From Lunularia cruciata (Eukaryota > Streptophyta > Marchantiopsida > Lunulariales > Lunulariaceae), in assembly GCA_948567375.1 (NCBI GenBank), contig OX419761.1, positions 19,568,243 through 19,632,242 on the forward strand: a DNA stretch of 64,000 nt, written 5' to 3'. The notes beneath the pieces were generated by a model. The model had not been told where the DNA came from and made no database searches. It saw only the letters and a program-made list of their open reading frames with translations. Positions 1-46,916 of the stretch are shown piece by piece (position 1 is the stretch's first letter; each line of letters begins with the position of its first letter). The position numbers and the translations under genes were made by a program.

Positions 1-195
1 ATTGCATCCACCTTGGATGTTCCATTATGGAGTTCAAAGGAGATATTGCAGCAACATGCAAGTCAATTGATGCAATAGACTTGGAGTGGAGCCTTTGTAC
101 CACTAGGAGACCAATGTGAGGATGAGCCTCTAGAGTCAATTACCTTGACACCTTTGGGTACCACATTCATTCCTTGGCAATATCTAGTAGAGGGA

Positions 196-1190
196 GTATG
201 TCTATTAGAGCTCGTTGGTGGGATGAGCATTGGAATAGTTGTGGTACTACAGGCGGGTATACAAGTATAGAGGTACTTGTATATGGAGAGAGATAAATCT
301 ACTAGGTAAGTCTCTCTATGTCATATGGCACACTTGGCCTATTTGTATGCAAAGTTTTTTTTTATGTCAATAGTCAAGGGTTACCAAAAGACCCTACCAA
401 TAGACATTTCTTTGCTGGGGGTGCAAGATTTGGAGAGACATGATCCCATTCATTTGGTGATTTTTGGATGGCCATGTCAAGGACATACACGTGCTGGCCA
501 ATGTTTGGGTCTTTAGGATTCTATTTTGGTGTGTTTTGGGAGATATTATGTATATTATGATATCTTTAGGTTCATGAAGCCATTTCTCCAACTTACATTT
601 TGGAGAACATCTCTTTGATGGGTGATTCTTGCATTTGGGTGGTAGCAAGTACACATCAAGTCCATTCTTGGATGGGACCTACTGTGTTGTTGGATGTAGC
701 CAAGTGGGATCATGGGCTCATGGTTTTCATCTTTGGTGGAAAAACCTCTTACTTAGAGAGGTTTTATAGCATACTTATGATGGGATTTAGTGACTAGACC
801 ACCTCACTATTAATGACATCTTGGATGTTGGGCATCAATCTCAAATCGTACTAGTGGCTGATAGGTCACCTATGGCAATGGTGGACCTAGTTGGATAGCC
901 TCAAGCCACTTTCACACACTTATGTGTTTCCTAGGATCTCATGCCTTTTGAGAAAGAGGTCTTAGACTTGTTTGAGATATATAGTTATAGCAGTTGGTGG
1001 AGCCTAATGCCAAAGAAAGAGAGTAGGCAATGGGTTTTTGCACCCATATGACTATGATTCTAGGAGTGTTAGAAGCATCCATGTGTCAGGTGTTAGGTCA
1101 GGCTATGGACCTAAATTTTTTGACCTGGATTGTGAGCCTTGGTTTGGTAGAGCAGCATAGGATGCACTTGATAAGCATCACCACTCGGAC
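196..1190 (+). pseudogene. Retrotransposon-borne C5-cytosine DNA methyltransferase domain (broken), copy A1
   Basis: DNMT motifs appear in the canonical order. Motif I, the SAM-binding loop, reads LLELVGGMSIG at 202-234, followed by VVLQAGI. Motif IV, the catalytic Pro-Cys-Gln, is at 472-480 within FGWPCQGHTRAGQ. Motif VI, Glu-Asn, reads TYILENI at about 591-611. A motif X-like stretch VLGQAMDLNFLTWI lies near 1090-1135. The catalytic cysteine codon (475-477) is intact, but stops (for example around 514) and frame changes separate the motifs, so this copy cannot make an active enzyme. An intact family member would transfer methyl groups from SAM to cytosine C5. The domain sits between the protease region and RT of one element, and copy A2 has it in the same place, so it is part of the element rather than a chance neighbour. 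Confidence 0.8.
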
Positions 1191-1489: not shown

Positions 1490-2950
1490 CGTCTTCCACT
1501 ACCACATTAGTTATAAAGGATACTTGGGAGCCAAATCTGGGACCCAAGCTTACAAGAATGGAAAAGATAAAGAGTTTGGAGGTTCTTGAGGAGCTACATG
1601 AGTTGTTTTGCCTTTAATATGAAGGATTTGGGTGCTTTGAAAAGACATGGTATTTGGATTGAGTTGACTAGCAATACATCAATTTTTTGATATCCCTGTT
1701 GATAGCATTAATTTAGAGCTAAAGTGGAGACCTTTTTGAGGCTAGTTTGGTAGAGATTTCACATGGAGAGTATGCATCAGCTACAATGATGCCAACCAAG
1801 AAGGATATACATGGAAACTATACAAATAGGTAGATGTGTGAAGATTATTGTCCTATCAACCAATAAACTAGGGCTGATTAGTATACCATACCTACAATGG
1901 AGGAGATCTTTGATGTGATTGGGCATGCAAAGTACTTTGGTACTTTGGATTTTTTAGTAGGATATCATCAATTGCTCATCAAGGAGGAGGATAAGTCCAA
2001 GACAAGATTTTGAGCTATTGATCCTCATAGCAAGGATGTGTTATATCAATGGAGTTTCTTATCATTTGGGTAAAAGAATACTCTTGCCAAGTTCTAGAGG
2101 ATCATGGATATGATCCTAGTTAGATTAAATTTTTCTTGGTGCTATATTGATGAAATTTTTATCTATAATACTACTATGGAGGAGCATGAGAGACATTTGT
2201 TGGAAGTGTTTGAGAGGTTGAGATCTCATGGACTCAAATTACATCATGGGAACTGTAGGTTCCTCCACAAGTAGGTTGGTATTTGGGTCACACTATCTAC
2301 CATGGAGGACTAGGTTTTTAGTAGACCAAGGTGGAGGTTATGCACATATTCCTTGGCCTACAAATGTGAGCAGAGTGTGAGCATTCCTTGGGTTGGCAAG
2401 CTTCTATAACCACTATGTTAGAGGATTTAGTGCCATTGCCAAGGTCTTGAAAAAGCTTACACTTACCAAGCTTACACAAAAGTGGTGTTGGGAAGATGAG
2501 CATGAGAGAGCTTTTGTAGAGCTTAAGGAGAGGTTGACATCTGCCCCTATTTTGAGGAGACCAATCAAAGGATGACATTTTAGGTTCACATTGATTGGAG
2601 TATGTTGGCAATTAGAGCAGTGCTCACCCAACATGATGATGAGGGGAAGGAGTTTGTGGTGGCCTATGCTAGTAGCTCTAACAATTCAATGGAGGCAAAG
2701 TATAGTTCATATGAGAGAGTGCTTGCAACAATATGGGTAGTAGCACATTTTTTATGTTACCTATTTGGTAACCCCTTTACACTCATCATTGATCATCATC
2801 TACTTCAGTGGTTGATGGAGTCCAATAAGCTTTCAAGGAAGCTTGCACAATGGGCTCTGATTTTATAGAAGTATGATTTTACAATTATTCATAGACTTGG
2901 AGTGGTGAATAGTGATATAGATAGGTTGAGTAGAAACCCATGTCCTAATT
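1490..2950 (+). pseudogene. Reverse transcriptase and RNase H of element A1 (broken)
   Basis: This Ty3/gypsy RT-RNase H region has many stops. The N-terminal lead-in (DTWEPNLGPKL) starts near 1510. The active-site box reads CYIDEIF at about 2140-2160, with Glu in place of the second Asp of the usual YIDD. The RT thumb and connection (2393-2575) includes RGFSAIAKVLKKLT. RNase H follows at 2602-2868 with VLTQHDDEGKEFVVAYAS and PFTLIIDHHLLQWLMES. Copy A2 (39591-41040) keeps YIDD, so the Glu here is a copy-specific change. The region once copied element RNA to DNA; this copy is dead. Confidence 0.8.
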
Positions 2951-3299: not shown

Positions 3300-4390
3300 A
3301 ATTCCATCTCAAAGACCACAGTTGGTCTTTCATGCTCATGAGGAATTAGGAAATTTTGGAGTAAAGTAGACTTATAGCTTACTCCAAAGTCATTATTGGT
3401 AGCATGTACATTGATGTATAGCAATTTGTTGCCAGATGTGTTGGTTATGACCAAGTTAGAGCATCATTTAATGCTCTTATGCCACAATTACACCCATTAC
3501 CTATCATGGGGTTGGGTTACCATTGGAGTTTGGACTTTGCTGGACCTTTTTTATTGATTGTGAGACATCATCAATATGTTTTGGTTATAGTGGAGCACTT
3601 CTCCAAGTGGATTGAGTTAGTGGCACTTCTTGATAAGTTCAATGAAGGGATGGCTTACTTGTTCTTGGATCGGGTTCTTAGTCATTTTGGTGCATCAACT
3701 GAGGTTTTGATTGATCAAGGTATAGAGTTCTTGAGGGATTTTAAACTCTTGTGTGACAAGGCTTTGATTGATCATCTTACGACCTCCCAAGATCACCTTG
3801 AGGCAAATGGTTCAGTAGAGAGAGTGGTTCAGGCAATAAAGAGAGGATTATGGAAGTATGGTTTGCAAAGAAGCTACTTGGGAGATTGGGATCTCCAATT
3901 ACCTTGATTGGCCATGGGCTATTGGTTTAGCTGGCAAGTCTCCTTAGCATCCTTCTCTCCTTACTTTCTTCTCTATGGATGAGATCTAGATTTACCTAAA
4001 GCCATTCATCAAGATGCTAATATAGTGTTGGACTTGGATGATCCAAATGTATGGATGAATGCATGTTCTCAATTGGTAGAGATCTTTTGGAGAGTGATGC
4101 CGATGGTCTTTGAGAACTTAGCAATTTCTCAACATAAAAATACCTTACACTATGCTACTATTTTAGGAAGAGGTTATAGACCCTCAATCCATCAATTTCA
4201 TCTAGGTGACTATGTATATCTACAACATACAACACCAACAACACTTGATGTTTCTATAGGCCACACTATCTTGAGAGTACATGAGGTTTTTCCATCTAGA
4301 GTCCTTGTGTTGGAACGACATGATGGTTTTGTTTGGAAGGATCATGTACGCAATTGCGCACCATGCTACCTCTCAAACATTGATGGTAAT
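3300..4390 (+). pseudogene. Integrase of element A1 (broken)
   Basis: A zinc-binding H2C2-like region lies around 3330-3450 (FHAHEELGNFGV, then a Cys-rich stretch). The catalytic core is the open frame 3479-3907. Its first Asp is in HWSLDFAGPF, the second in VLIDQGIEF, and the Glu in NGSVERVVQAIKRG. The frame 4025-4390 continues as the integrase C-terminal region (YRPSIHQFHLGDYVYLQ), the usual SH3-like part that binds DNA non-specifically. It reads straight into the PHD finger at 4430. Stops lie between the pieces (for example at 3905), so the gene is not functional. Confidence 0.75.
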
Positions 4391-4429
4391 ATGGATCCAA
4401 GCTTGGCACTTGTATGTGTAGGCTTGTTG

Positions 4430-4564
4430 TGTATATTATGCGGCTCTTTTGGTAGAGTTACTACTATATTAGTGTGTGATAGTTGTTTGAGAGGATGGCA
4501 TATGGCATGTTTGACTTGTCCACTCATAGTAGTTCCTCAAGGATAGTGGTTATGTCCTAGTTGT
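4430..4564 (+). pseudogene. PHD finger at the C-terminus of the A1 integrase
   Basis: In the frame of the integrase tail the codons give C-x2-C, 11 residues, C-x2-C, 4 residues, His, x2, Cys, then 14 codons and C-x2-C. This is the C4HC3 ligand spacing of a PHD zinc finger. Typical family residues are present: ILVCDSC, GWHMAC before a Pro, and VPQG-stop-W ahead of the last Cys pair. One in-frame TAG (4544-4546) falls at a normally variable position just before the conserved Trp, and a TGA follows at 4568. PHD fingers read histone H3 tails. Chromoviral integrases use a chromodomain in this position for targeting, so a similar role is inferred here. Copy A2 is truncated before this region. Confidence 0.75.
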
Positions 4565-4739
4565 ACTTGACCTATAGCTAGTTCATTCTTTATATAGTGT
4601 AGATTGTAGACTTGCAATTAACAATGGGGCTTGATAGCACTTGACCTCTTAGTCTTTTGCCCACCATAATGTATACCATATATTTGGAGTAGATGGCTAC
4701 TTGGAGTTAGAGGACCTAACTACCAATTGGGGAGGCAAT

Positions 4740-5285: not shown

Positions 5286-5393
5286 TGTAGCACTTTAGAG
5301 TGCATGTATGACTTATGTGTGAATTGTGCTTTTATAATGTGTGAGGTTGACAGTAATGTATGTTGTATAGTAATGTATATATATACACAACAT
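5286..5393 (+). repeat. Second copy of the A-family LTR start
   Basis: TGTAGCACTTTAGAG at 5286 and the next 100 bases match 4740-4850 with scattered substitutions, in the same orientation and about 546 bases away. It could be an LTR fragment, a tandem LTR, or an internal duplication. Confidence 0.5.
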
Positions 5394-23122: not shown

Positions 23123-23897
<775 letters not shown>

Positions 23898-30269: not shown

Positions 30270-31060
30270 ATGAGTTCTAGCTCTAGTAACGTTTGTGATC
30301 TCTTGGAGATGGTGCTACTACGGGTGAAGGTACTACTACAAGAGGTAGTTAGTATTGGGGTTTAACCCCATGGTGGAGTTCTTCTAGTGTTTGAGGTAGA
30401 ACTACAAAGGAGTGAGGACTGACAAGTTGAGGAGCTTGCAAGAGTTCCAATGGAATGTTGGAGAGAGCTTACACGAGACATGCAGTTGCATGAGACTGTT
30501 GATCAATTTTACTCAAGGAGTATCTAAGGCCCGAGCATTCCAATTTTGGTATGGGGTATTGGAAAATGAGTTACAACGTAGAGTCCGTGATGCTATGTTG
30601 TTACAAGCTACTTTGCCTACTTTGGCAATGGTCTTTGGTTTGGCTGAGCGGATTGAGCTCAACATGGTGGAGGAGAGAGTGGCAACACCTGGATTTGGTA
30701 AGGAGGCCTCATCCACAACTATTACTTCTTTTAGAGTGCAGCAGAGTGCACCATGCCATGTTGGTTCCCAAGGATAAGGTGGAAAGCCTAGATCCTATGG
30801 AGCGAGTGGAAGGCCTAGTGTAGCTAGACCCTTACCTTCATTTTTGAGTCAACAATAGCCAATGAGTGGTGGTGTTGCTTGTAGGACTTGTAGTAGACCT
30901 TACCACAGGAGGGAGTGCACTCAAGGCAATGGACTTGATACCTCTGGTGCATCACAACCAGCACAGAGATAGTGTGAGCATTACTACAGATTTGGTCACA
31001 CTAGTGACTGATGCTTTGACCTACACCTAGAGTTACAAAGTGGTAGGCTGCTATGGCAGG
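30270..31060 (+). pseudogene. Gag of element A2 (broken)
   Basis: A start at 30270 gives MSSSSSNVCDLLEMVLLRVK. The main open frame 30412-30777 matches a gypsy Gag capsid-like region (LRSLQEFQWNVGESL, RAFQFWYGVLENELQRRVRD). Downstream at about 30880-31015 are two nucleocapsid knuckle-like motifs: a C-x2-C-x4-H-x4-C pattern (CRTC...HRREC) and a damaged second one (CEHYYRFGHTSD). Stops and frame shifts interrupt it. Gag would form the virus-like particle and package RNA. Confidence 0.7.
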
Positions 31061-31859
31061 TGGTAGAGGAGCTCCAGGTAATGGAGGACAAGGTGGTAGA
31101 GGTGGTGGTAGAAGATCCACACTTGGTAGGGGTGTAGTACCTACTTTTACTTTTGATACAACCTTGGCTACTTGGATTGAGCAATTAGAGCAAAGATTGG
31201 CTAGCATGGCCATAGCTTAGAGGAGATCAGATCCGAGTGCTAAGGCTTCCACCTCATATGATGGTGATAGAGATGTCTTAGATTTCATGTGCGGAGCAAT
31301 ACAGGTAGATGCCTTTCTCGTAATGACTAGGAGTGCAGTACGTGCTCCAAAGCTTAGAGCAACATCAGTAGAGTTGGATCCACATAAAGGAGAGGTTGGT
31401 AGATAGGTTAGACTTCCTTAGTCTTTTACACTCTTTGAGGCATTATAGATGACATCTATGGCTCCTAGACGTCCTAGTGCAAGTATGGTAGGTGGTGATG
31501 AGGTGCATGATGGACTACCTACTAGTCAACCACTTACTACTACACAGATTGAGTCTTGCGTGATGTTAGGGGCGGGTCAAATGATTATGCACTTTCCATT
31601 ATTCTCAACCAATGACATATTTACATTGGGAGTTGACCTAGCCCTAGTGTTCCGGTTGGCTGCCATGCTTTGTGAGAGTAGGATGATGTGGTTCCTACTA
31701 CTAAAGTAGAGGTGGTTGATAGTGGAGTTGACTTGGTTGAGGAGCATGGGATCCGCTCAATGACCAATGGTTTATGGCAAGCAGCAACGGCTAGATTGGA
31801 GGAGTTACCAACTAGACCGGCCTTTGAGCAAGCATAGTTTACACCAAGAGTTGTCCTAT

Positions 31860-32574
31860 TGGAAACCAAAGGGATTTTTTTTGGTTTGGTGGGACCTTTA
31901 GGGAAGGTCTATACACCACAAAGGGTCTTACTAAACTCTAGTGTGTAGCCTCTATGGTGGGGAAGGATGTAGTTGTCGATCTAGAGATACAAAAGACCAA
32001 TGTAGAGAGATGTCTATTTCATATTCATACATCTTTAGGGGGTGGTTCTACATATTACATCACATGTGGAGAGCTTGTTGTCCAAATTCTGCTTGGTCAT
32101 CTAATTGATAGCTATAGAGCTATCAATCAGATGAGCTCAAGCCATTGTGACACTTGCTGAGTCATATGATGTGTTAGTTCAAGGAGCAGTGCTATACTCC
32201 ATGGGTTTCAATATTGACTATTGGGAGGAGATAGCCTTCTATAGACCAAGTTGGCAGTTAGGTGAGGAGCATGTATGTTATCTACTAGTACAATTTAGTA
32301 GTGGTAGTCTTGGCTCACTATGGTTGAGACCATGGTAACATCAGTTTCAGCTTTCAATGGTTCTATTACTTGGCCTGGTGACTTATTGGAGTGGAACACC
32401 CATGCAGAGGATACTCCAATACCAAAGGAGATCACTTGGATTTGGAGTACAAGTTGGATTGTTCCATCCACCTTGGATGTTCCATTGTGGAGTTCAAAGG
32501 AGGCATTGTAGTAGCATGCAGATCAATTGGTGCAATAGGCTTGGAGTGGAGCCTTTGTACTACTAGGAGACTAG
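31860..32574 (+). pseudogene. Protease-like region of element A2 (broken), cut by element C
   Basis: After a Gag-Pol linker, frames read GLVGPLGKVYTPQRVLLNSS near 31890-31945, where an aspartic protease would have its D-S/T-G box; here Asp and Gly are gone. Later come AESYDVLVQGAVLYSMGF and DYWEEIAFYRPSWQ near 32155-32260. Element A1 begins at the equivalent of 32459, so the end of this block is shared by both copies. Assignment to protease is by position and the box context. Confidence 0.45.
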
Positions 32575-32644
32575 TGTAACAATATGGAGTTTAGTGACGA
32601 AGTTAGTCGGGCTTACGAAGTAGAGAATAAGACAAAATAGCCTA

Positions 32645-32866
32645 GAATATTCTAGAAGCATCTAAGAAGCTTCTTAGGAAACTTCCCAACTAGTTAACTT
32701 GCGCCCTAAGCAGGTAGCTTCTAGAAGGAAGCTTCTAGAAGCTTCTAACTAGCTTAGCTTGCATGCCAAGTAGGCGGCTTCTAGAAGGAAGCTTCTTGAG
32801 AAGCTTCCTAGTTAACTTGGCTTGCACTCCAAGAAAGCGGCTCAAGGAAACTTCTTGAGAAGCTTC
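32645..32866 (+). promoter_or_regulatory. Array of heat-shock elements in the element C LTR
   Basis: Heat-shock factors bind alternating GAA and TTC units spaced by two bases. Perfect runs here are GAATATTCTAGAA (three units, 32645-32657) and GAAGCTTCTAGAAGCTTC (four units, 32728-32745). Two-unit GAAnnTTC or TTCnnGAA sites lie at 32666, 32678, 32719, 32779, 32788, 32800, 32847 and 32859. They end about 20 bases before the TATA box. The 3' LTR has the same array. Heat responsiveness is inferred from the binding-site grammar, as known for the Arabidopsis ONSEN element. Confidence 0.75.
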
Positions 32867-32885
32867 AAGGGTCTTGTATGCTACC

Positions 32886-32893
32886 TATAAATA
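32886..32893 (+). promoter_or_regulatory. TATA box of element C
   Basis: TATAAATA, correctly placed in the LTR about 110 bases before its end and just downstream of the heat-shock-element array. Confidence 0.8.
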
Positions 32894-32998
32894 CCAAGGC
32901 CGAAGCTCATGCTAGGCATTCAGAGTTTTCCCTCATTCAAGTGTCCCAATGTGAGCTTCCATTCTCCTATTTCTCTCCTCGGTTTCGGTCTTTTACAT

Positions 32999-33010
32999 TG
33001 GTATCAGAGC
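32999..33010 (+). promoter_or_regulatory. Primer binding site of element C (initiator tRNA-Met)
   Basis: TGGTATCAGAGC lies two bases after the 5' LTR and is the standard complement of the 3' end of plant initiator tRNA-Met. Confidence 0.95.
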
Positions 33011-33267
33011 AGGAATGGGATGGATGGAATTTATGGACCACCCAATCCACTTCCGCCGAACCATTGGGACTTTCATGTCCAGATATTACCAAAGCATCGT
33101 TTCACACAATTCATCACCTCACGCTTTGGGCAGGATTTTCTACATATGATCACCGTGTCAGAGGAACCCTTGATACTTCCAGTTGTAACTTATGGAGAAC
33201 GGTGGACGTGTTGTATCTACGTGTTAATCAACTAGATAAATTGCAGGTAGTGGAATAGATAATAGCG

Positions 33268-34167
33268 ATGGCGGCAATACCGGATGTTATCCTTGCAATG
33301 CAACAACAAATCGAGCATCTTACTCGATTGTTGGATGAACGAGACCAGCAACGACGAGAACAGATAGACAGAGCGCCAGTTCGAGATGGAGAAGATCGCA
33401 TTCGATTTTCGAAACCCAAGGTGTTTGAAGGCAAGAATCTTCCAGGCACAGTGGAGAATTTTGTGTTTGACTGTGAACGTTACTTTGAAGCCACCAATCT
33501 TCAAGACGAGCAGAAACAAATTCTCTTGGCTTCTAGCCAATTGGATGGAGTGGCAAAACTTTGGTGGCGATTCCGAGTAGAAAGAGCTGAATGACAAATT
33601 GTTACACCAATTTTTACATGGGCAGAATTCAAGGATGCAATACTTGGTCGATTTCAGACTATAAATGCCACCCGAGCTGCACGAGATAAATTGGCGGAGT
33701 TGAGGCAGATTGGCTCAGTGAGAAGCTACATCACACAATTTCAGAATATCATCATGCAAATTCCAGATATCCAAGAAGGTGAAGTTCTGGATCGATTTGT
33801 GCAAGGATTGAAGTCACGAACCAGATTGGAGGTGACCATGCGAGAGCCACAGAATGTAGAACAAGCCATGCAATTGGCTGAGCATTTTGATTCCTTAGTT
33901 GCGACAACTTGGTCTCGACCTCGACCTACACAAAACCCACCAGTACCACGAGTGGAAGAACCGGTACCAATGGAGATTGATGCTATCCAACGAAGACCAC
34001 TTGGCACAGCAGATAGAGAAAGATTACGACAAAATGGAGGTTGTTTTTATTGTCGCCAGTTGGGGCATCGCATTGCCGAATGTCCACTCAAGAATGGACG
34101 ACCTCGACAAGTTGCCCAAGTGGAGGTTGTGGAGCGGAACGATCAGGGAAACGAGGGATCCCAGTAG
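33268..34167 (+). pseudogene. Gag of element C (one internal stop)
   Basis: The frame from ATG 33268 to TAG 34165-34167 is 299 codons long with one TGA (33592-33594). The N-terminal part (QQQIEHLTRLLDERDQQRRE) is a short coiled coil. The capsid-like core includes KPKVFEGKNLPGTVENFVF and AKLWWRFR before the stop and GSVRSYITQFQN after it. A CCHC zinc knuckle ([14 protein letters not shown]) is at 34042-34083. Full length is typical of chromovirus Gag. The TGA truncates Gag to about 108 residues unless it is read through. The last 22 bases hold the frameshift signal that leads to pol. Confidence 0.93.
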
Positions 34168-34224
34168 GAGATTTCGAGCCGCCTACTGGGAGCTTGATTA
34201 GTTCCAATGGGATTGAAGGCTCGA
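34146..34224 (+). promoter_or_regulatory. -1 ribosomal frameshift signal at the gag/pol junction of element C
   Basis: The heptamer GGGAAAC (34146-34152) is in the X-XXY-YYZ register relative to gag. A 6-base spacer follows, then a 10-bp perfect stem (34159-34168 with 34182-34191). The loop segment TCGAGCC (34174-34180) is fully complementary to GGCTCGA at 34218-34224, giving an H-type pseudoknot with loops of 5, 1 and 26 bases. Slipping back one base moves the ribosome into the pol frame 13 bases before the gag stop, and the stop itself lies in stem 1. These are the known components of retroviral -1 frameshift sites; activity here is inferred. Confidence 0.85.
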
Positions 34225-37200
34225 CCTATGCAAGTTTGCTTCACTTGCAAGGTATGATATCTAATCGGGGTTGTAGAATTTTGGTTGATTCTGGAAGTTC
34301 AGAGAATTGCATGTCTATGCAAGTAGCAAAGGAATTGGGTATTCCTATCAAGCCAGTGATTGGAAGTAGTTTGATGATGGCGGATGGTAGAAAGGGTTCT
34401 GCATTCTGCACCTTGCATCCTGTTACCTTCAAGATTGGGAAGGAGTATTTGGAGTGTATGAGGTTTGTAGTGGCACCTCTACACTATGATATCATTCTGG
34501 GTCTACCTTGGCTTGAATGTCATAAGGTTCAATTTGATTGGACCCGACACCAAATTCAAGTACAACACCAAGGTAGTAATTTCCGATTAGGTTGTCTGGC
34601 ACCTCTGAGTAAGACACCTAAGAATAGTCAGTCCCAAGATGGGAAGTTTGTCGAGAAAGTAGCCATAGAGCGAATCTGGAAGGGAGATGAGTCCCAAGAT
34701 GGGAAGTTTGCCAGGAAGGCAACCATGGAGCAAGCTCGAAAGAGAGATGAGTCCCTAGAAGGGAAGTTTGTTAATGAAGCAGCCATAGAGCAAGCTTTAG
34801 AAGAAGATAAGTCTGTATTCGCAGTGTGGATCAAGCCGATTGCACAAGAACAATCTGAGGAGGGCCAAGTGCCGCATCAAGCGACGGTTGATCGGATAGT
34901 TCAAGAGTTTGCAGATGTGTTTCCGGATGATCTGCCAAAGGGATTACCCTCTGATCAAGGTATGCCTTTCAAGATCGAGTTATTGCCAGGGAGTACTCCA
35001 GTGAGTAGACCAATCTATCGGCTCTCAGCAAAGGAGTTGGAGGAGTTGCGAACAACACTTACAGAGTTGTTGGAGAAGGATTTCATACGACATAGTACCT
35101 CCCCTTGGGGAGCACCGGTACTATTTGTTCCAAAGAAGGATGGAGGACTTCGTTTCTGTATTGATTACAGTGGGCTCAATAAGCAAACTGTGAAGAATGC
35201 ATATCCCTTGCCTCGGATCGATGACTTGCTTGATCAATTAAGTGGAGCACGATACTTTTCCAAGCTTGATCTTTGTAGCGGCTATTGGCAAATTCCTATT
35301 GAAGGAGAGGACGTGAAAAAGACTGCCTTTCGTACAAGGTATGGACATTTTGAGTGGAGAGTTCTACCTTTTGGACTCACTAATGCTCCAGCAATCTTCA
35401 TGGATCAGATGCATCGGGTGTTGGAGGGGCTATTGGATCAGTCTGTGGTAGTGTTCTTAGATGATATCTTAATCTATAGTAAGACAGAGGCAGAACACAT
35501 GAATCATGTGCGAGAAGTCCTAAGACGACTACGACAGTGGAAATTTTACTGCAAGAAGTCAAAGTGTGCTTTTTGGCAGAAGGAGGTTACCTTCTTGGGT
35601 CATAAGATCTCATCAGAGGGGATCAAGATGGAAGAAGAGAAGATCAAGGCCATTACTGATTGGCCTACCCCAAAGGATGCTACCGAAGTACGAGCGTTCA
35701 ACGGATTGGCCAGTTTTTACCGATGGTTCATCCACTATTATGCTCACGTGGCTGCACCATTGATTGACCTCTTGGGAAAGAACTCGAGCTTCCAATGGAA
35801 CACCAAGCATGAAGAAACATTCCAGAAGTTAAAGCATATGGTGTCTTCAAGACCCATTCTTCAACCATATGATCCTCAACTACCTTGTGTGGTTGATTTT
35901 GATGCTTCTAACTTTGCAATTGGAGCTGTGTTGCAACAAGAATTTCTAGATGGACTACATCCTATTGCCTTTGTGTCTCGCCGACTAAATACAGCTGAAA
36001 GAAATTACTCTACTCGAGATCGGGAACAACTTGCAATGGTATATGCCACCAAGGTATGGAGGCATTATCTCTTGGGGAAACAAGTGATCATGCGAACTGA
36101 TCACAAGCCATTGTTGCAGACCTTACACCTAGAGCACATGAAGAGTCGACATCATCGATGGGAAGAGCAACTCCAATTGTTCGACATCAAACTTGAGTAC
36201 AAACCAGGTTGGTTCCATGTCATCCCTGATGCTCTATCACGACGACCTGATTTGAAGTCTCTTCCTCTCATCGCGGCAGCAATTACGACGGTGTCAATTG
36301 ATCCCAAGGTTCATAACGAGTTTCGGTTAGCCCTACAGCAAGATCTCTTCTTCCAAATGGTACACGGTCGTCTAACAGCACGCGACAAGGAATACAACAC
36401 CTTCTCCTTCAAGGAAGGCCTTTTATTCCATGCAGACCAGATCTATGTTCCAACCAAAGGTGATCTTCGACTTGTGCGCCTTCAAGAAGCCCATGATTTA
36501 CCAATAGCTGGTCACATGGGAGTGGACAAGACCTTGGGCACTCTCCAACGCCAATGGTGGTGGCCCAACATGACACGAGATGTTCGAGACTTTGTCCGAT
36601 CATGTGAGAGTTGCCAACGGAACAAGGCCAGCAACCAAAAGCCGAGTGGACTCCTTCAACCACTCGCCATTCCATCCGCTCGTTGGGAGCATGTGAGCTT
36701 GGATCTCATCACATCCTTGCCAAAGACAAAACAAGGACACACCGCAATTGTGGTGTTTGTGGATAAGCTTAGTAAGCAAATCCACTTGGCACCAACCTGT
36801 GATACCGTGAATGCTCCAACCTTAGCACAAATCTACTTCGACAATGTCTTCAAGCATCATGGGATGCCACGTGTACTCATCTCCGACCGTGATCCTCGAT
36901 TTACCGGGAAGTTTTGGCAAGCACTCTTCCAGATACTTGGCACCAAGCTTGCTTTGTCCACGGCCTATCATCCTCAAACTGATGGACAAACCAAACGTGC
37001 CAATCGTACATTGGAGGATATGTTGCGGGCCTTTGTCAATGTCCACCATACCAACTGGGATGAATGTCTTGCAGCTGCAGAATTTGCCTACAACAATTCC
37101 AAACAGGCAAGCACTGGATTTTCTCCCTTCTTTCTCAATTTTGGCCAAGATCCGCTTGTTCCAGATTCTCTTCTTGCTCCCCCTCCCTCTCAAGTTCCTC

Positions 37201-37859
37201 ATACTTCTACATTCTTGACAACTATATCCCAATCTCTCCAACAAGCCAAATCTCACCTCCTTGTTGCTCAGAATCGCCAAAAACAATATGCAGACCATCA
37301 TCATCGTGATCTCACCTTTGAAGTTGGTGATAAAGTCATGCTTTCCTCTAGTAACCTCCCTCTCCCACTTGATACCCAAGTTCGTAAACTTGCTCCTAAT
37401 TGGATAGGACCCTTTGATATCACCCACATTATCTCTCCTGTTGCTTATCGTCTTGCCTTACCTTGTCACATGCGTATCCATCCTGTCTTTCATATTTCCA
37501 AGTTGAAACCCTTTGTTCCTAACCCTTCTTCTTTTTCCTCTCGAGTCCAACCTCCCCCTCTTCCTGTCCCTATCAATGATCATGAGGAGTACGAAGTTGA
37601 TCGTATCCTTGCACGTCGCCATATTCAACGAGGCCGTCACCCACATACGGAGTACAAGGTCCTTTGGAAAGGGTATCCCCTTCATGATGCTACATGGGAA
37701 CCTCTTTCTCACCTCCAGAATGCACAGATGGCCATCAAGGAATTCGAAGCTTCACTGGCGACGAGGACGTCACCAACTAGCGGCGGGGGAATATGTAACA
37801 ATATGGAGTTTAGTGACAAAGTTAGTCGGGCTTACGAAGTAGAGAATAAGACAAAATAG
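34146..37859 (+). CDS. Pol polyprotein of element C (protease, RT, RNase H, integrase, chromodomain)
   Basis: The frame is open from before 34041 to TAG 37857-37859; translation probably enters it by -1 slippage at 34146-34152. Positions below count residues from 34041. The protease box VDSGSS has its Asp at residue 83. RT includes [14 protein letters not shown] and the active site FLDDILIYS (Asp 474). RNase H begins [14 protein letters not shown] near 618 and has [10 protein letters not shown]. Integrase has the H2C2 zinc region ([16 protein letters not shown], 822-857), a first Asp near 887 and the second at 949 (SDRDPRF). A chromodomain lies at about 1182-1225 ([28 protein letters not shown]). 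At the D-x35-E position, residue 985 is Lys (AAA, 36993-36995), so strand transfer is probably lost. The frame runs 22 codons into the 3' LTR before stopping. This is a chromovirus-type Ty3/gypsy. Confidence 0.95.
37780..37793 (+). promoter_or_regulatory. Polypurine tract of element C
   Basis: GCGGCGGGGGAATA directly precedes the 3' LTR and is the expected plus-strand primer site. Confidence 0.75.
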
Positions 37860-38216
37860 CCTAGAATATTCTAGAAGCATCTAAGAAGCTTCTTAGGAAA
37901 CTTCCCAACTAGTTAACTTGCGCCCTAAGCAGATAGCTTCTAGAAGGAAGCTTCTAGAAGCTTCTAACTAGCTTAGCTTGCATGCCAAGTAGGCGGCTTC
38001 TAGAAGGAAGCTTCTTGAGAAGCTTCCTAGTTAACTTGGCTTGCACTCCAAGAAAGCGGCTCAAGGAAACTTCTTGAGAAGCTTCAAGGGTCTTGTATGC
38101 TACCTATAAATACCAAGGCCGAAGCTCATGCTAGGCATTCAGAGTTTTCCCTCATTCAAGTGTCCCAATGTGAGCTTCCATTCTCCTATTTCTCTCCTCG
38201 GTTTCGGTCTTTTACA
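37794..38216 (+). repeat. 3' LTR of element C
   Basis: Same length as the 5' LTR with two visible differences (A at the positions of G32599 and G32714). It contains the last 66 bases of the pol frame and the same heat-shock-element array. Confidence 0.97.
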
Positions 38217-38279
38217 CTAGTGTGAGGATGAGCCTCCAGAGTCAATTACCTTGACATCTCTGGATACCACACTCATTGC

Positions 38280-39260
38280 TTTGCAGTATCCAATAGAGAG
38301 TATGTCCATTGGAGTTGTTTGATGGGATTAGCACTAGACTAGCTATGGTTCTACAAGCATGCATATGAGTACAACGGTACATGTATGTGGAGAGAGATGA
38401 GATTGCTAGACAAGTCTCTCTACATCATATGGCACACTTGGCCTATTGATATCTTGAGTTATTACCAATGTAAGCAATTAGGGGTTACCAGAAGATCCTA
38501 CCAATAGACATTTCCTTGCAGGTGGTGCAAGATTTGGAGAGATATGGTTCCATTCATTTGATGATTTTTGGATGGCCATGTTAGGGACATACATGTGTTG
38601 GCCAAGGTTTGGATTTTCAGGATCCTTGTTTGGGTGTGTTTTAGGCAATGTTACTTATACTTTGACATCTTTAGGTTCATTAGTCTATTCCTCCAACTTA
38701 CATTTTAGAGAACATCCCTTTGATGGATGGTTCTTGCACTTGAATAATGGTGAGTACCTTGAATGGGACCTGCTTTGTTGTTAGATGCAACCAAAGTGGG
38801 ATCACGGGCTCATCATCTTCATATTTGGTGGACAAAACTCTTCCTCAAAGAGGTTCTATAATATACTTATGATGTGAGTCAATGACTAGATCACCTCATT
38901 TTGATGAGATTTTGGATGTTAGGCACCATTCTCAAATGGTGGGAGTGGTTGATAGTAAGTGGTTACCTATGGTAGTGGTGAACCTAGTTAGATAGCCCCA
39001 AGCCGCTTTTCCTACACTTATGAGTTTCCTAGGCTCCCATGCATTTTGAGAGGGAGGTCTTGGACTTGTTTGGGACTCATAGTTACAACAATTGGTGGAG
39101 CTCAACATCAATGAGAGAGAGAGCATGCGATGGATTTTTGCACTTGTATTACCATTGTTCCAATAGTGTTAGAGGCATCCAAGCGTTAGGTGTTAGGTCA
39201 GACTATGGACCTAAACTATTTCACATGGATTGTGAGCCTTGGCTTGGCAGAGTAGTGTAA
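38280..39260 (+). pseudogene. Retrotransposon-borne C5-cytosine DNA methyltransferase domain (broken), copy A2
   Basis: This matches A1 196-1190 at the same place in the element. Motif I is mutated around 38312-38345. Motif IV lies in IFGWPC with the Pro and Cys codons at 38576-38581, but the Gln position is a TAG stop. Motif VI reads TYI-stop-ENIPLMDG near 38697-38725. Later blocks include SFLGSHAFEREVLDL near 39027 and, in another frame, an LGVRS/LGQAM-type stretch near 39195. Motif order and spacing agree with A1, so the shared domain predates both insertions. Many stops: non-functional. Confidence 0.75.
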
Positions 39261-39590
39261 GATGTGCTTGATAAGCATCACCACTCAAACACTTGTGAGT
39301 TCTATGCCTATTGAGATGATTCAGGCACATGTTGGAGGTGATAGACCAAGTGGACAAGGTATTCTTGGGACACAACCAATGGCTACTAGAGTGAACTAGG
39401 TCTACTTGGAGTCCATCTAGGTGAGCGTGACCTACTTGGATCACACCTTTGGTCTACTTGGGATGCAACTAGAGGACATATGGAGCTTGCAACCAGAGTG
39501 GAGTGAGTTTTTCACACTAAGGTTGTGACCTCTAGTGGTTGGAGATATGGTACTACTATTCCCAAGAGCATAGTATAGTAGCCAATCAAT

Positions 39591-41053
39591 ATGTCTTCTA
39601 CTCCTACATCAGTTATAGAGGATACTTGGGAGCCAAATCTAGGCCCCAAACTTACAAGAGAAGAAAGACAAAGAGTTTGGAGGTTCTTGAGGAGCTACAC
39701 AAGTTGTTTTGCCTTTAATATGAAGGATTTGGGTGTTTCAAAAGGACCTAGTATTTGGATTGAGCTGACTAGCAATACTCCAATTTTTTGATATCCCTAT
39801 CAATATAATGACATAGAGAGAGCATTGATTCAAAGCCAGAGTAGAGACCTTTTTGAGGCTACTTTAGTGGAATTTCACATGGAGAGTTTGGATCAACTAT
39901 AATGATGCCAACTAAGAAAGATATGCATAGCAACTACATAGATAGACAGATGTGTGGAGATTACAGTCCTATCAACCAGTAGATAAGGGCTGATAGTATG
40001 CCATACCTACACCATAGGAGATTTTTGATGCAATTTGGGTATGCATTTGCATACCCAATGCATGTCTTCAATACTTTGGATCTTTGAGCAAGATATCATA
40101 GATTGTTAATCAAGGAGTATGATAAGTCTAAGATAAAATTTTGGGCTATTAATCCTCACGGCAAGGATGTGTTATATCACATGGAGGTTCTTACCATTTG
40201 GGTTAAAGAACACTCCTACCAAGTTCTAGAGAGTCATGGATAGGATCCTAGTTGGATTGGATTTTTCTTGGTGCTATATTGATGATATTTGGTCTATAGC
40301 ACTATTGTTGAGGAGCATGAGAGACATTTGTTGGAGGTGTTTGAGAGGTTGAGATCTCATAGACTTAAATTACATCTTGTGAAGCATAGATTCTTCCATG
40401 AGCAGGTTGAGTATTTGGTTCACACTATCTACTTTAGCGGACTTGGTGTTCAACAGACCAAGGTAGAGGCTATTGTGTGTATTCCTTTACCTATGGATAT
40501 GAGTAGAGTGCGAGCATTCCTTGGGTTGGTGAACTTCTATCACCACTATGTTAGAGGATTAAGTGCCATTTCCAAAGCCTTCACAAAGATGACCAAGCTT
40601 ACACAAGAGTGGTGTTGGGGAGATGAGCAGGAGAGAATTTTTCTAGAGCACAAGGAGAGGTTGACATTTGCTCTTATTTTGAGAAGGCCAATCAAAGGAT
40701 GACCATTTCAGGTTTACATTGATTGGAGTATGTTAGGGCTTGGAGCAGTGCTCACCCAACATGATGATGAGGAGAAGGAGTTTGTGGTGGCTTATGCTAG
40801 TCACTCAAACAATTCAACAGAGGCAAATTATAGTTCATATGAGGGAGAGTGCTTGGTAGAAATATGGGCAATAACACCTTTACAATGTTACCTATTTGGT
40901 AACCCCTTTAGTCTCAACATTGATCATGAACCATTGAAGTGGTTGATGGAGTCCAACAAGCTTTAAGGAAGCTTGCACAATGTGCTTTGATTTTACAAGA
41001 GTATGATTTCATGGTTATTCCTAGACCTAGAGTGGTGAATTGTGATGCATATG
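39591..41053 (+). pseudogene. Reverse transcriptase and RNase H of element A2 (broken), cut by element B
   Basis: Starts with DTWEPNLGPKLTREERQRVW and FAFNMKDLGVSKGPSIWIEL. The RT active site keeps CYIDDI near 40280. The frame 40289-40702 reads VEEHERHLLEVFERLRSH and MSRVRAFLGLVNFYHHYVRG, and RNase H follows at 40730-40966 (GAVLTQHDDEEKEFVVAYAS, SLNIDHEPLKWLMES). It stops at the element B insertion at 41053; the sequence resumes at 47658. Confidence 0.82.
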
Positions 41054-41795
41054 TGTAATACCAAGGGTTAGCCATATGATCTAGATGTGAAATTTGGTTT
41101 GGTAACATCTAGAATGATGTTATACATGATGGTCAAAATAGATCAGATAGAAGTATCACCAAAAGAGTACTTCTACTAATAGGGAAGAAACCGAAATAGA
41201 CTTGAGAACCTTAGAACCAATAGCTAGACATATGATTTAAAGGTGAGAATTGGTTTGGTAACATCTGGAAAGATGCTACACATGATGGACTAAACAGATC
41301 AGAAAGAGGTATCACCAAAAGGGGACTTCTACTAATAGAGTAGGAACCAAAATATGCTTGAAATCTTTGAAGGCAATTTCAGAGGCCTAAACAGATGAAT
41401 TAGGCCTCGAAAATATGCAGATTCCCCCCCCCCCCAACAGAGGAAAGGTTGGCCTTCCCTCCGCTTGCTTTGTCTCATTGAGAGCTTTCCAACGGTACCT
41501 TACTCACGTGATTTTGAGATTCCTACAGGAAGATTCCCTAAAAGATTCCCTCCAGTAAAAGCTTATTTGACCAACCAGATAGGACCTAGACCAGACAGGT
41601 CACCCATCCAAGTAAGTAATCCAAGGGTGGAGCTTGCTGACATGTCACCTATCTATGTCCCTAATCCTATGGTGGAGCTTCCTTGGAGGAGATCCTCTTT
41701 GTCTATATAATAAAGAGAAGGTGCTCCCTTGGGGCATCGAAGGTTTGAGTGTGCAATCTGTGTTTTCTCTCTTCTCTTGTCCTCGGAGTATTACA
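41054..41795 (+). repeat. 5' LTR of element B
   Basis: Contains a diverged tandem duplication with a 156-base period (copies starting near 41073 and 41229), a C12 tract near 41424-41435, and TATATAATA at 41704-41712. Confidence 0.96.
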
Positions 41796-41796
41796 A

Positions 41797-41808
41797 TGGT
41801 ATCAGAGC
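41797..41808 (+). promoter_or_regulatory. Primer binding site of element B (initiator tRNA-Met)
   Basis: TGGTATCAGAGC one base after the 5' LTR. Confidence 0.95.
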
Positions 41809-42390
41809 GAGTGTTCTAGTCCAAGAGAGTGGATCACCCCTCTTGGAATAGCACAAACTACTGAAACTGAGTAATGTGAGGTGGAGAACATAGAGTAATC
41901 GTTAGACTCAAGAAGGACTTTAGAGAGCGGAGGGGATGGATGCACCGGGGGGATAATTTCCCGCACCTAGCTTTCCATTCTCAAACCCATTCCACATCAA
42001 GGTTATGTACATCCAGCGTGAGCAGATGAGGGTATCACTAGTTTATCACTTTGGTGCGGAATTCATGGACAGAGTGCTGAACTCACCAAACTCGGTGATT
42101 TTACCTGTGGTGATATATGACAGAGAGTGGGATTTGACGATCTACATTCTATTATGATAAAATGGATATGAATGTCCCAAATCCTCTCCCTTTCAACACT
42201 CAAGTAGAAATCCGTTATGTAGTGAGGCCGAAAGTGGTGTTTTGTGGTTAGGAATTTTGGTGAGGAGTATTATCAACGAGTGATAGCTTCTGAGGTCCCA
42301 AGGGTAGTTCCGATAGTTTGTGCACCTTCCAGAGTGATTATATTGACTCTGTATTGAAGAAGACATTAGCAATTGGATGTTGCAGGAACC

Positions 42391-43479
42391 ATGGATCCGC
42401 AGTTGCAAGAGCTGGTGCAAGGAATGCAAGGGATGTTGAATGAATTTTGAGAGATTAAGATGACCATGGAGACATTACAAAGTCAAGTGCAGATCCCGAG
42501 GAACGATCAAGCCATGCAAGAAAAAGAGCCACCTCAAAACCCTGGACCTGCGACTAAAGTGCTTGGAGAGGCACCCGTGCCTACGAACCCTATCAACGGT
42601 GAAGCCACATTGCTACTCCAGATGAAGAAGACCTGCAATATCGAGCCTTACAAGGGGCAGCGTATGATGGGAGTAGTGGAAAATTGGATCTCGAGAATGA
42701 ATCGATATTTCCGATTGTTCTCAACAGAGATCACTGAGCATGCTGCACACGTGTTCGCATGTGGGTACTTGACGGATAAAGCCCTCACATGGTATGATGC
42801 TTGGGAATGATCCATGCTGGCAGAGAGAAGGGAGGTCACATGGACAACAATGCAAGAAGGATTGCTGAAGAATTTCCAATCGGTAGATTCTGTGCAGATG
42901 GCTCGAACCCGACTATGGGGATTGAGACAGAAGAATAGTGTACAAGAGTATGTGGAGACGTTTCTGGATCTACAAGTTGCAATTACCGACATGAGTCCAG
43001 CAGAGGCTCTCAACAATTTCAAACAAGGGTTGAAAGAGCAGATTCGCCAAGAAGTCATGGTGCAAAACCCTCGCACGGTATTTGAAGCCATTGCTTGTGT
43101 GCAGAGAATAGCAAGAGCATTAGGTGGAGGTGAAGGAGTAGTTCCACCTCAACATTATCGTGCAGAAATGCCACACATGGGTGGACCAATACCAATGGAA
43201 TTGGGCAACCTTTGATTCTGGGATCAAGGAGCACGACCACTTCAAGGAGAGCGGGGACGAGTAGAAGAACGAAGAGATGGAGCCCCACGAGGAGAAGGAA
43301 CTCGAGGAGAAAAACGCCATTGTTACAATTGTGGCCATATTGGGCACATATCTACCAATTGTCGCACTTGTTTCTCTAGAGGCCCTCGGCCTTCGTACAG
43401 GCGAGCTTTGAACAACATGGAGAGGCACATTGAAGAGGAGGAGGTGGAAACCACTTCGGAAAATGAAGATCGCCAGTAA
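42391..43479 (+). pseudogene. Gag of element B (three internal TGA stops)
   Basis: The frame from ATG 42391 (MDPQLQELVQGMQGML) to TAA 43477-43479 is 362 codons with TGA at 42448, 42808 and 43213. The capsid-like core includes GVVENWISRMNRYF, LTWYDAWE and LRQKNSVQEYVETFLDLQ. A CCHC knuckle (CYNCGHIGHISTNC) lies near 43321-43362. No frameshift within gag was needed to read it. Pol follows in the -1 frame relative to gag, as in element C, but the junction is too decayed to locate a slip site. Confidence 0.88.
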
Positions 43480-43517
43480 ATGTACCTCGCGGCCTTACTG
43501 GCTCAATAAGGAAGTAG

Positions 43518-46500
43518 AGAAGCGAGGGAAGGAAGAAGAATAATGCACAAAGAGCCCGAAAGGCAACCTCTCAACTAATTGTTGTGAATGGAATCCTAGA
43601 AGGTAATCAAGTGAGAGTATTAATAGATCCAGGAGCAACAGAGAATTTCTTGTCTCGCTCTGTTGCAATAAGATTGGGAATGGATCTAGAGAGAGACGGA
43701 AGTGAAGAAGCAGAGTTACCAAATGGGCAAACAGAGAGGATTGAATCATTACCTAGATGGGTAACCCTCTCTGTAGGAGAATATCAGGAAGCAATTGAGT
43801 GGCAAGTGATACAGTTAGCCCGTTATGATGCAATTTTAGGCATGCCATGGATGGAGCAGTACAACCCAATGGTGGATTGGAGGAAGAAAGTAGTGAGAAC
43901 CCACCAATGGTCAATCATTGGGGTTAAAGAAAAATCACACAAGCAGAAACTGCCTCTATATGTCATAGGGACAACAATTGTCTGTAAGACCGATAGATGT
44001 TTTATGGGTCTAACAAGAGAAGTCCAGAGTGCACAACTTGCTGGACAAATTCTGGAGAAATTGAAAGATGTGGTGGATGAGTTTCAAGATGTCTTTCCCG
44101 ATGATCTACCCTCAGGATTACCACCTAAAAGGCGAGTAGACCACAAAATAGAGACACTCCCGAGGAAGACACCTCCTTGTAAGGCCCCATATTGCCTATC
44201 ACCTCATGAGTTGGAGGAGTGTAAGACTCAAATTGAGGAGATGCTACAGAAAGGGTTCATCCAACCTAGTGTATCATCATATAGGGCCCCTGTCTTGTTT
44301 GTGAAGAAGAAGGATGGTACAATGCGCATGTGCATTGACTATCAGGGTCTCAATCAACAAACAATGAAGAAAAAATACCCCTTACCTCGCATGGATGACT
44401 TGTTTGATCAACTCCATGGAGCGAGATACTTCACCAAACTGGACTTGCGGAGCGGTTACAATCAAATCCAAATTGCAGAGGAGGATGTGTACAAAACTGC
44501 CTTTCGAACCAAGTATGGCCACTTTGAGTATCTTGTGATGCCTTTTGGCCTCACAAATGCACCTGCCACTTTCATGAGTCTAATGAATGACATATTTCGT
44601 CCATACTTGGATAAGTCTGTTATCGTCTTCTTGGATGATATCTTAGTATATAGTAGCACGATGACAGAATACAAACAACATCTACGAGAGGTCCTTGAGA
44701 TTCTAAGACAGAATCAATTGTACGCCAAAATCTCAAAGTGTGAGTTTGGCAAGTCTGAAGTAGACTACTTAGGGCATAGAGTAAGTGCAGAGGGCATTCA
44801 AGTATTGACAGATAAAATAGAGGTCATTCAAAAATGGAGTGCCCCAAAAGATCAGACTCAACTTAAGAGCTTCTTGGGGTTGACGGGATTCTATTGTAGA
44901 TTTGTCAAGGACTTCTCCAAGGTTGCACAGCCTTTAATGGCACTACTTGGCAAGGGGAAGAAGTGGACATGGGGAACTGCACAAGAGTTGGCCTTTCAAG
45001 AATTGAAGGCCGCCTTGCTACATGCACCAATCTTGAAGTGGTATGACCCAAAACGTCCAATCAAGTTGGCTACAGATGCATCAGGCGTAGCCATAGGAGC
45101 AGTCCTACAACAAGAGTGGCATGACGGATGGCATCCAATTGCATATTTCTCTTGAAAGTTGTTATCGGCAGAGCACAACTACCACACCACAGAACAAGAA
45201 GAGTTGGCCATCGTATAGCAACCAAGCATTGGAAGCACTACTTGGGCGAGAAGGCATTTGTAGTAGAGACAGACCACAAACCTCTAGTCTACCTCGAGAC
45301 ATAAAAGGATCTATCTCGTCGCCAAATTCGGTGGGCAGAGTGGCGACAACGCTTCAACATGACAATCACCTACGTGGAAGGTAAGAAGCAACTTGCAGAT
45401 GCATTCACCCGCATGCCAATGGCCAAAAACTTGGTGGCAGAGGTTAAGATTAACCCTGAATTCTGGCAAGAGATTCTAGCTGCTACAAAAATTGATCCAC
45501 AGATTGTCAAAGCACAATTGTCCAAAGGCGTCACTAGCACCCAAGGACTCACCTTTCGGGATGGCAGATTATGGATCCCAAATGTCCCAGAATTACGCAC
45601 CACCATTCTAGCAGAATGTCATGATTCGGCCATTGCAGCTCATGCCGGAGTGGACAAGACCTTGGATGCAGTCAAGCGCTATTACTATTGGCCCAAGATG
45701 AGCAACGACGTGATGGACTATGTGCGTAGCTGCCTACTTTGTCAACAGAACAAAGCTTCTAATCAAGCTCCTGCAGGGCTCCTTCAACCTCTCCCCACTC
45801 CTACCCAACGTTGGGAACAAGTGAGTAGGGATCTCGTCTATGAATTACCCAAGACCACCTCAGGGTTTGATTCCATTGTGGTCTTTGTGGACCGGCTCAA
45901 CAAAATGATTCATGTATGCCCTACCACCAAGGAGGTGACCGCTCCACAACTAGCTCAACTATACTTAGATGCAGTCTTTGCTCACCATGGCTTGTCTAGA
46001 GTACTCATCACCGATAGAGGTACCCAATTCACCAGTTTGTTTTGGTGAACATTCTTTGGTTTCTTCAAAACCAAGTTGGTCATGTCCACAGCTTACCACC
46101 CACAAACAGATGGCCAAACAGAGCGGGTGAATCGCACAATTGAAGACATGTTACGCGGCTTCACCTTAGAAGAGCAAGAGAGGTGGGACACCCTATTACC
46201 GTTGGTGGAATTCGCTTACAACAATTCAGTGAATGCGTCCACTCAGGTCACTCCGTTCTTCCTCATGTATGGTGAGCATCCCCTCACACCTTCTAGCTTG
46301 ATGAAGATCCGTCCAGTGACTACCAAGGTTGATGCAATCAACACATTTGTTTCTAGAATCCAACAAGGTGTGGAGAGCGCTAAGCATAGGTTACAGATTG
46401 CGCAAAATCAACAAAAGCAGTATTCTGATGCACACCGGAGGCACATGGAGTTCAATGTTGGGGATCAAGTGTGGCTATCAACAACCAACCTCACATTAGT

Positions 46501-46903
46501 TGGATCTCGTAAGCTCAGACCTCATTTTATTGGGCCTTTCTCGATTCTTCATCGCATCGGCGCTGTGGCCTATCACCTTGAGCTACCACCACACATGAAG
46601 ATCCACCCAGTGTTCCATGTCTCCCTACTACACAGATATGCTCCCCGATCAGGCCAAGGTCCTTCCACACAAGACATTCGACCTTGTCCGACACTCATTG
46701 ATGGCACAGAGGAATATGAAGTGGAGCGGATTCTCCAAAAGCGCATGCGTGGTACTCGCCATCCGCGGGTGGAATATCTAGTACAATGGAAAGGTAATCC
46801 CCTCTATGAAGCAACCTGGGAACCCGCTGCCAATTTGGCACATGCACCGGTGTTGGTGCAAGCATTTGAGCAACAATTGCACAACGAGGACGTTGCGTCT
46901 TAA
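43518..46903 (+). pseudogene. Pol of element B (broken): protease, RT, RNase H, integrase, chromodomain
   Basis: The protease box is IDPGATENF, with Pro after the catalytic Asp (43626-43631) where Ser or Thr is normal. RT includes [14 protein letters not shown] and [13 protein letters not shown] near 44625-44660. RNase H starts [19 protein letters not shown] (45153), a frameshift near 45215 and a TAA near 45302 break it. Integrase has GVDKTLDAVKRYYYW and CLLCQQNK, then ITDRGTQFTSLFW-TGA (46046), then [18 protein letters not shown] with the catalytic Glu kept. A chromodomain (EEYEVERILQKR, VEYLVQWKGNP, ATWEP) lies at about 46706-46830, ending at TAA 46901. Confidence 0.93.
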
Positions 46904-46916
46904 AAGGAGGGAGGTC
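46902..46916 (+). promoter_or_regulatory. Polypurine tract of element B
   Basis: AAAAGGAGGGAGGTC immediately before the 3' LTR. Confidence 0.85.

What the first reader, a model, noticed from the sequence alone, without database searches (positions are those of the whole stretch)
196..1190. A Ty3/gypsy family that carries a C5-cytosine DNA methyltransferase between protease and RT
Seen: DNMT motifs I (LLELVGGMSIG), IV (PCQ in FGWPCQGHTRAGQ), VI (ENI) and a motif X-like block in canonical order, directly upstream of gypsy RT, in copy A1. Copy A2 has the same domain in the same place at 38280-39260. Known: LTR retrotransposons with captured cytosine methyltransferases have been reported in algae and some other eukaryotes. 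Inference: this plant hosts, or hosted, such a family, which may methylate its own or host DNA as self-regulation or as a counter to silencing.
Basis: partly seen in the sequence, partly recalled or inferred. Interest (0 to 1): 0.9.

Follow-up and report, generated by a model that had tools for sequence, protein, structure and literature searches.

The report
Gypsy retrotransposon carrying a DNA methyltransferase
Two decayed copies of a jumping gene in a liverwort-like genome carry a captured DNA-methylating enzyme, and one copy also keeps a histone-reading finger; relatives in other liverworts and peat mosses show that an element kind described from an alga also lives in early land plants.

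Summary

New here: the host is most likely a marchantiopsid liverwort (one WRKY fragment). The family occurs in liverworts and Sphagnum, although one paper states that such elements are absent from land plants. A1's integrase tail bears a PHD finger (PF00628, E 4.9e-7), seen in this one copy.

Both copies are dead: stops, frameshifts, CpG o/e 0.08-0.19, flat codon-position divergence. Gypsy-Dnmt3 is already known from the alga Klebsormidium, so this is a new variant of a known kind. Self-methylation is inferred. The window's genome could not be searched.

The parts
2..117 (+). A1: spacer between protease and DNMT (frame 1)
   Evidence: blastn 88% to 32462-32577; tblastn P0035/P0001
118..1233 (+). 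A1: decayed Dnmt3-type C5-cytosine methyltransferase domain, in three frames, with stops
1619..2916 (+). A1: reverse transcriptase (RVT_1 at 1876-2268) and RNase H (2572-2874)
   Evidence: PF00078 8e-15, PF17917 8.2e-24; follows the DNMT as in Riccia P0092
3307..3907 (+). A1: integrase zinc-binding (3307-3402) and core (3518-3784) pieces
   Evidence: PF17921 0.0026 and PF00665 9.5e-7 (29.5 bits, cut-off 32.6), both below the curated cut-offs; A2's counterpart passes
4025..4567 (+). A1: integrase C-terminal region and PHD finger (4430-4564); open frame to 4546, one stop inside the finger
   Evidence: PF00628 E 4.9e-7, 30.1 bits, cut-off 24; PDB PHD fingers, E down to 6.5e-12. The integrase C-terminus was recognised by eye
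30352..31211 (+). A2: gag-like region with zinc-knuckle part
   Evidence: tblastn Marchantia P0034 E 3e-33 and P0014 E 9e-22; no Pfam family in the frames scanned
31775..32299 (+). A2: aspartyl protease region; active site decayed (DSGA of relatives reads NSSV)
   Evidence: tblastn P0055, P0022, P0008; translation; no Pfam family in single frames
32335..32574 (+). A2: spacer between protease and DNMT, cut by nested element B
32575..38216 (+). Nested young gypsy element B inside A2 (LTRs 423 bp, 2 differences; TSD CTAG). Not part of the family
38224..39342 (+). A2: decayed Dnmt3-type methyltransferase domain
39720..41046 (+). A2: RT and RNase H
   Evidence: PF17919 4.2e-23, PF17917 6.6e-23; PF00078 pieces below cut-off
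41054..47657 (+). Nested gypsy element C inside A2. Not part of the family
   Evidence: LTR pair 41054-41795 / 46917-47657, 96%; flanks ATATG / TTATG, no exact duplication
47660..48344 (+). A2: integrase start (zinc-binding 48039-48200); similarity to A1 then stops
   Evidence: PF17921 1e-13; blastn 80% to A1 2921-3615

Best explanation
A1 and A2 are dead copies of an old Ty3/gypsy lineage of early land plants, with the order gag - protease - Dnmt3-type methyltransferase - RT - RNase H - integrase - PHD finger (a composite of the two copies). Shown: domain identity, order, relatives, decay. Inferred: in living copies the DNMT would be made with Pol and would methylate cytosines (most likely CG) of the new cDNA before or at integration; the PHD at the integrase tail would steer the integration complex to chromatin with a given H3 tail state, as the chromodomain is thought to do in chromoviruses. 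Methylated cDNA could pass as resident DNA or set the state of the new site. I put about 0.9 on the identity, 0.45 on cDNA self-methylation and 0.4 on PHD-guided integration.
For: Relatives in Calypogeia, Marchantia, Riccia and Sphagnum, most listed ones with PF00145 (26 of 34). Same neighbours elsewhere: gag-DNMT in Marchantia P0014, protease-DNMT in P0008, P0022 and P0043, DNMT-RT in Riccia P0092 (the named ones are predicted gene models). Dnmt3 type by profile and fold. PCQ in 49 of 55 covering rows and ENV in 54 of 59. A1 and A2 sit with bryophyte rows, 99/93. PHD above cut-off with a C4HC3 ligand set. De novo CG methylation by retrotransposon DNMTs is stated in the abstract and discussion of PMC5890265.
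Against: No single-frame Pfam hit for DNMT, gag or protease in the window. Both copies are broken. A1-A2 divergence is flat over codon positions, so it shows no selection on the DNMT in this host. The PHD is seen in one copy only; A2 lacks that end and no relative in hand covers it. No activity was measured. CpG loss is confounded with age. Plant DNMT3, CMT and Klebsormidium sequences were not in the comparison.
Confidence: 0.8

Rival explanations
1. The DNMT acts to limit the element's own spread: self-silencing keeps copy damage low, so the element persists.
For: A copies are strongly CpG-depleted (o/e 0.08-0.19), as expected of DNA that was long methylated.
Against: Host silencing of any old element gives the same; B and C are younger (B LTRs differ at 2 of 423), and the stretch 50200-63400, which is not A, is also low at 0.22.
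Confidence: 0.2
2. The domain no longer methylates DNA in this lineage but binds nucleic acid or methylates RNA.
For: Motif IV reads PCQ, where the DNMT3A chain shows PCN; identity to DNMT3A in structural alignments is about 22-25%.
Against: PCQ, ENV and the methyltransferase fold are kept in relatives; PCQ is usual in DNA C5 methyltransferases (recalled).
Confidence: 0.12
3. The DNMT is a host gene or pseudogene beside which a gypsy element happened to land.
For: Non-flowering plants have true DNMT3 genes (PMC6453930, passages).
Against: Two copies share the arrangement at 80% identity, and proteins of other species join gag or protease to DNMT and DNMT to RT.
Confidence: 0.02

Closest known systems
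KnitGypsy-Dnmt3 of Klebsormidium nitens (de Mendoza 2018, PMC5890265; charophyte and discussion sections read)
   Same: Dnmt3-type methyltransferase without DRM rearrangement inside the Pol polyprotein of a gypsy LTR element of a streptophyte
   Different: Host is an alga; its repeats are described as DIRS-like; I saw no PHD in the sections read. Its sequence and exact domain order were not available here, so common descent is untested
SymbioDIRS-Dnmt3 of Symbiodinium (same paper)
   Same: Dnmt3 domain in Pol with RT
   Different: DIRS element with tyrosine recombinase; described there as an independent acquisition
Chromoviruses (Ty3/gypsy with integrase chromodomain)
   Same: Histone-reading module at the integrase C-terminus; elements B and C here look like this (chromodomain read by eye)
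   Different: A1 has a PHD finger there, plus a DNMT in Pol
Animal DNMT3A/B
   Different: About 22-25% identity, PCQ instead of PCN; the PHD of A1 lies at the far end of Pol, whereas animal DNMT3s have ADD and PWWP domains (PMC12344493 passage)

Membership tests
C5-cytosine DNA methyltransferase, Dnmt3 type | Significant match to the DNMT catalytic domain | tested here: met
   Relatives carry PF00145 (26 of 34); DNMT3A 6e-20 by profile. Window copies alone: no Pfam hit in 6 single-frame translations
C5-cytosine DNA methyltransferase, Dnmt3 type | Closer to DNMT3 than to DRM, Dnmt2, DNMT1 or bacterial enzymes, canonical motif order | tested here: met
C5-cytosine DNA methyltransferase, Dnmt3 type | Catalytic PCx and ENV motifs | tested here: met
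   Relatives: PCQ 49 of 55, ENV 54 of 59. A1 PCQ and ILEN present; A2 PC then stop
C5-cytosine DNA methyltransferase, Dnmt3 type | Methylates cytosine | not testable with these tools
   No experiment
Ty3/gypsy LTR retrotransposon | gag, PR, RT-RNase H, then integrase downstream | tested here: met
   Composite of A1 and A2; RT, RNase H and (A2) integrase zinc domain by Pfam, gag and PR only by similarity to relatives
Ty3/gypsy LTR retrotransposon | Flanking LTRs and target-site duplication | tested here: inconclusive
   No LTR pair found for A1 or A2; the 5' end of A1 is outside the window
Gypsy-Dnmt3 lineage of bryophytes | DNMT nests with named bryophyte sequences | tested here: met
   25-row set at 99/93 in a 63-row tree; window rows have odd composition
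KnitGypsy-Dnmt3 family | Common descent with the Klebsormidium element | not tested
   No hit named Klebsormidium among the 120 of 183 listed
PHD finger | PF00628 above cut-off, eight zinc ligands C4HC3 | tested here: met
   30.1 bits vs 24; ligands read by eye

The most novel reading that the evidence does not exclude
The lineage carries a linked writer and reader of chromatin: a Dnmt3-type methyltransferase in mid-Pol and a PHD finger on the integrase. Together they would insert the element into chosen chromatin and methylate it at once, a selfish parallel to the ADD-DNMT3 pairing of animals, kept in bryophytes since before mosses and liverworts parted.
Probability: 0.25. Interest if true: 0.8.

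Novelty: new variant of a known kind. Interest (0 to 1): 0.6.

Why it matters
[quoted passage not shown] The family is present in several liverworts and in Sphagnum, so methyltransferase-bearing gypsy elements are not confined to algae. Marchantia is a tractable model plant in which the role of such a DNMT could be tested. The PHD finger raises a new, testable link between integration targeting and DNA methylation.

Tried and rejected
Single-frame Pfam scans of both DNMT copies: 0 PF00145 hits in 6 translations. Three-frame scans of A2 31000-32577 and 30300-31000: no family. phmmer of the piecewise read of A1 against PDB: DNMT3A only at E 1.8, below hits to superoxide dismutase at 0.54. A first structure model with 8 sequences was poor (pLDDT 56) and was replaced. 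Viral contigs with the family profile: 45 loci of 24-53% best-segment identity, taken as viral or bacterial methyltransferases from the source and low identity, not examined one by one; P0055: no match. Genome contigs with P0035: 12 pattern matches, no relative. Selection test on A1 vs A2: flat codon positions, DNMT 60/46/55, p 0.39; the other four stretches p 0.76-0.89; so no claim of past selection on the DNMT rests on these copies. CpG depletion as a sign of self-methylation was set aside because age confounds it. My first idea of a seed-plant host was dropped after the WRKY search.

Literature: searches (10 of 10). No listed title or abstract start was about gypsy-DNMT3 in bryophytes or a PHD finger in a plant gypsy element. 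This holds only for the listed papers of an open-licence library: one search listed 19 of 20, only 15 of 142. PMC12344493 (passages) notes DNMT3 inside retrotransposons of streptophytes, citing the 2018 paper. PMC10952607 (passages) gave nothing on it. PMC6317226 (find) has 0 occurrences of PHD and of methyltransferase.

Full report
Observation. The window holds two copies of one element, A1 (from the left edge to about 4570) and A2 (30352-48344, interrupted). A1 115-2916 aligns with 38221-41046 at 80%, A1 2921-3615 with 47660-48344 at 80%, and A1 2-117 with 32462-32577 at 88%. A2 was split by two later gypsy insertions: B (32575-38216; LTRs of 423 bp with 2 differences; 4-bp duplication CTAG on both sides) and C (41054-47657; LTRs 96% alike; flanks ATATG and TTATG, no exact duplication). 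Read in order, A2 has gag-like and protease-like sequence, spacer, DNMT, RT, RNase H and integrase start; A1 has spacer, DNMT, RT, RNase H, integrase and a PHD finger. The gag and protease of A2 rest on similarity to relatives; single-frame Pfam scans of that stretch found no family.

The DNMT. Six single-frame translations had no PF00145 match, since both copies carry stops and frameshifts. A piecewise read of A1 found 34 proteins at E <= 10 (worst 1.6e-3), best 1.3e-72, 26 of 34 with PF00145; 8 of 34 bear species names, all bryophytes (Calypogeia fissa 3, Sphagnum troendelagicum 2, Marchantia polymorpha 3). Piecewise identity to Calypogeia P0035 is 187 of 359 (A1) and 173 of 356 (A2) residues. 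A profile of eight relatives with unbroken frames (some of them partial) found 183 proteins at E <= 1e-6 among the 7997 candidates scored; of the 120 listed, 15 name bryophytes (Calypogeia 5, Marchantia 5, Sphagnum 4, Riccia 1), one names a bacterial MAG (P0047), the rest bear no organism; the 63 others were not seen.

Linkage in other species. Marchantia P0014 joins gag-type sequence to the DNMT start; Sphagnum P0008 and Calypogeia P0022 join a DSGA protease to the DNMT; environmental P0043 has PF13650 and PF00145 above cut-off. Riccia sorocarpa P0092 runs from the DNMT C-terminus into RT-start sequence that matches A1 1619-1845 and A2 39720-39961. The named ones are predicted gene models from genome assemblies: P0092 skips the linker seen in the window and P0014 lacks the protease, so they show neighbourhood and order rather than a proven single protein. 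A second layout also exists: P0126 has RT-RNase H-DNMT and P0094 DNMT then integrase H2C2; P0033 has an RNase H-like end then DNMT (by eye).

Tree. Of the 126 family proteins, the 60 that span at least 62% of the domain, plus A1, A2 and DNMT3A segments, gave a 63-row tree. The others were dropped as too short. A1 and A2 join at 100/100 and sit in a 25-row set (99/93) with Calypogeia, Marchantia, Sphagnum and unnamed rows; another Calypogeia row (P0073) lies outside it, in the 31-row set (100/99). My row labels called P0019, P0022 and P0073 (Calypogeia) and P0031 (Marchantia) 'env'. A2 is flagged as a long branch and both window rows as odd in composition, so their exact place is unsure. No DRM, CMT, DNMT1 or plant DNMT3 was in the tree. 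No vascular plant is named in the listed hits.

PHD. The open frame 4025-4546 runs from integrase C-terminal sequence (by eye) into a PHD finger: PF00628 E 4.9e-7, 30.1 bits against a cut-off of 24. PDB relatives include KMT2D 6.5e-12, CHD4, KDM5B and ATXR5. One stop lies inside the finger, just before its conserved Trp. No second copy or relative covering this end was available, so family-wide presence is open.

Decay. Differences between A1 and A2 are 194 of 984 aligned sites in the DNMT and 210 of 1296 in RT/RNase H, spread evenly over codon positions in the DNMT (60, 46, 55; p 0.39; C-terminal part p 0.76) and in RT (p 0.76-0.89): both decayed without visible constraint after insertion. 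CpG o/e is 0.096 in A1 and 0.19, 0.08 and 0.14 in the three A2 stretches, against 0.58 in B, 0.44 in C, 0.62 in the WRKY ORF, 0.34 for the window and 0.22 at 50200-63400. This fits long methylation; whether by host or self is open.

Host. The only clear host gene I followed is the WRKY end at 63444-63998 (minus). Its best hits are Marchantia polymorpha 65%, M. paleacea 66%, Riccia 60 and 56%, Calypogeia 47%. A tree puts it in a six-row set (99/99) with Marchantia paleacea, Riccia and one unnamed sequence. The host is most likely a marchantiopsid liverwort, and probably none of the named species, as no near-identical hit appeared. This rests on one gene fragment. The genome itself could not be searched.

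Mechanism and known kinds. Retrotransposon DNMTs of Symbiodinium and a gypsy-Dnmt3 of Klebsormidium are described in PMC5890265 (abstract, first two results sections, charophyte section and discussion seen), with de novo CG methylation reported and cDNA self-methylation proposed. The same reading is the likeliest here, but it is inferred. PMC6338049 (passages) states absence from land plants such as tracheophytes; the bryophyte records contradict this for land plants, while tracheophytes remain untested.

Noticed in passing
window 32575-38216: Young gypsy element B with a 1272-residue open frame and LTRs that differ at 2 of 423 bases, nested in A2
   Followed up: partly
window 8513-9256, 41054-41795, 46917-47657, 54022-54777: Four copies of a ~742-bp LTR-like sequence: two flank element C, two others lie elsewhere in inverted orientation; each holds an internal ~157-bp repeat
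   Followed up: no
window 23286-23627: ORF that looks like ribosomal protein L23 (uL14), possibly a retro-pseudogene; recognised by eye
   Followed up: no
window 58324-58439: 116-bp palindrome, 95%
   Followed up: no
protein P0047: A family member is filed under a Candidatus Obscuribacterales MAG on a 2.4-kb contig; probably plant or algal contamination
   Followed up: no
proteins P0033, P0094, P0126: Second layout with the DNMT between RNase H and integrase; source organisms unknown
   Followed up: partly
window 4738-4844 and 5284-5390: 107-bp direct repeat (87%) just 3' of A1 after a purine-rich tract; may be part of A1's 3' LTR
   Followed up: no
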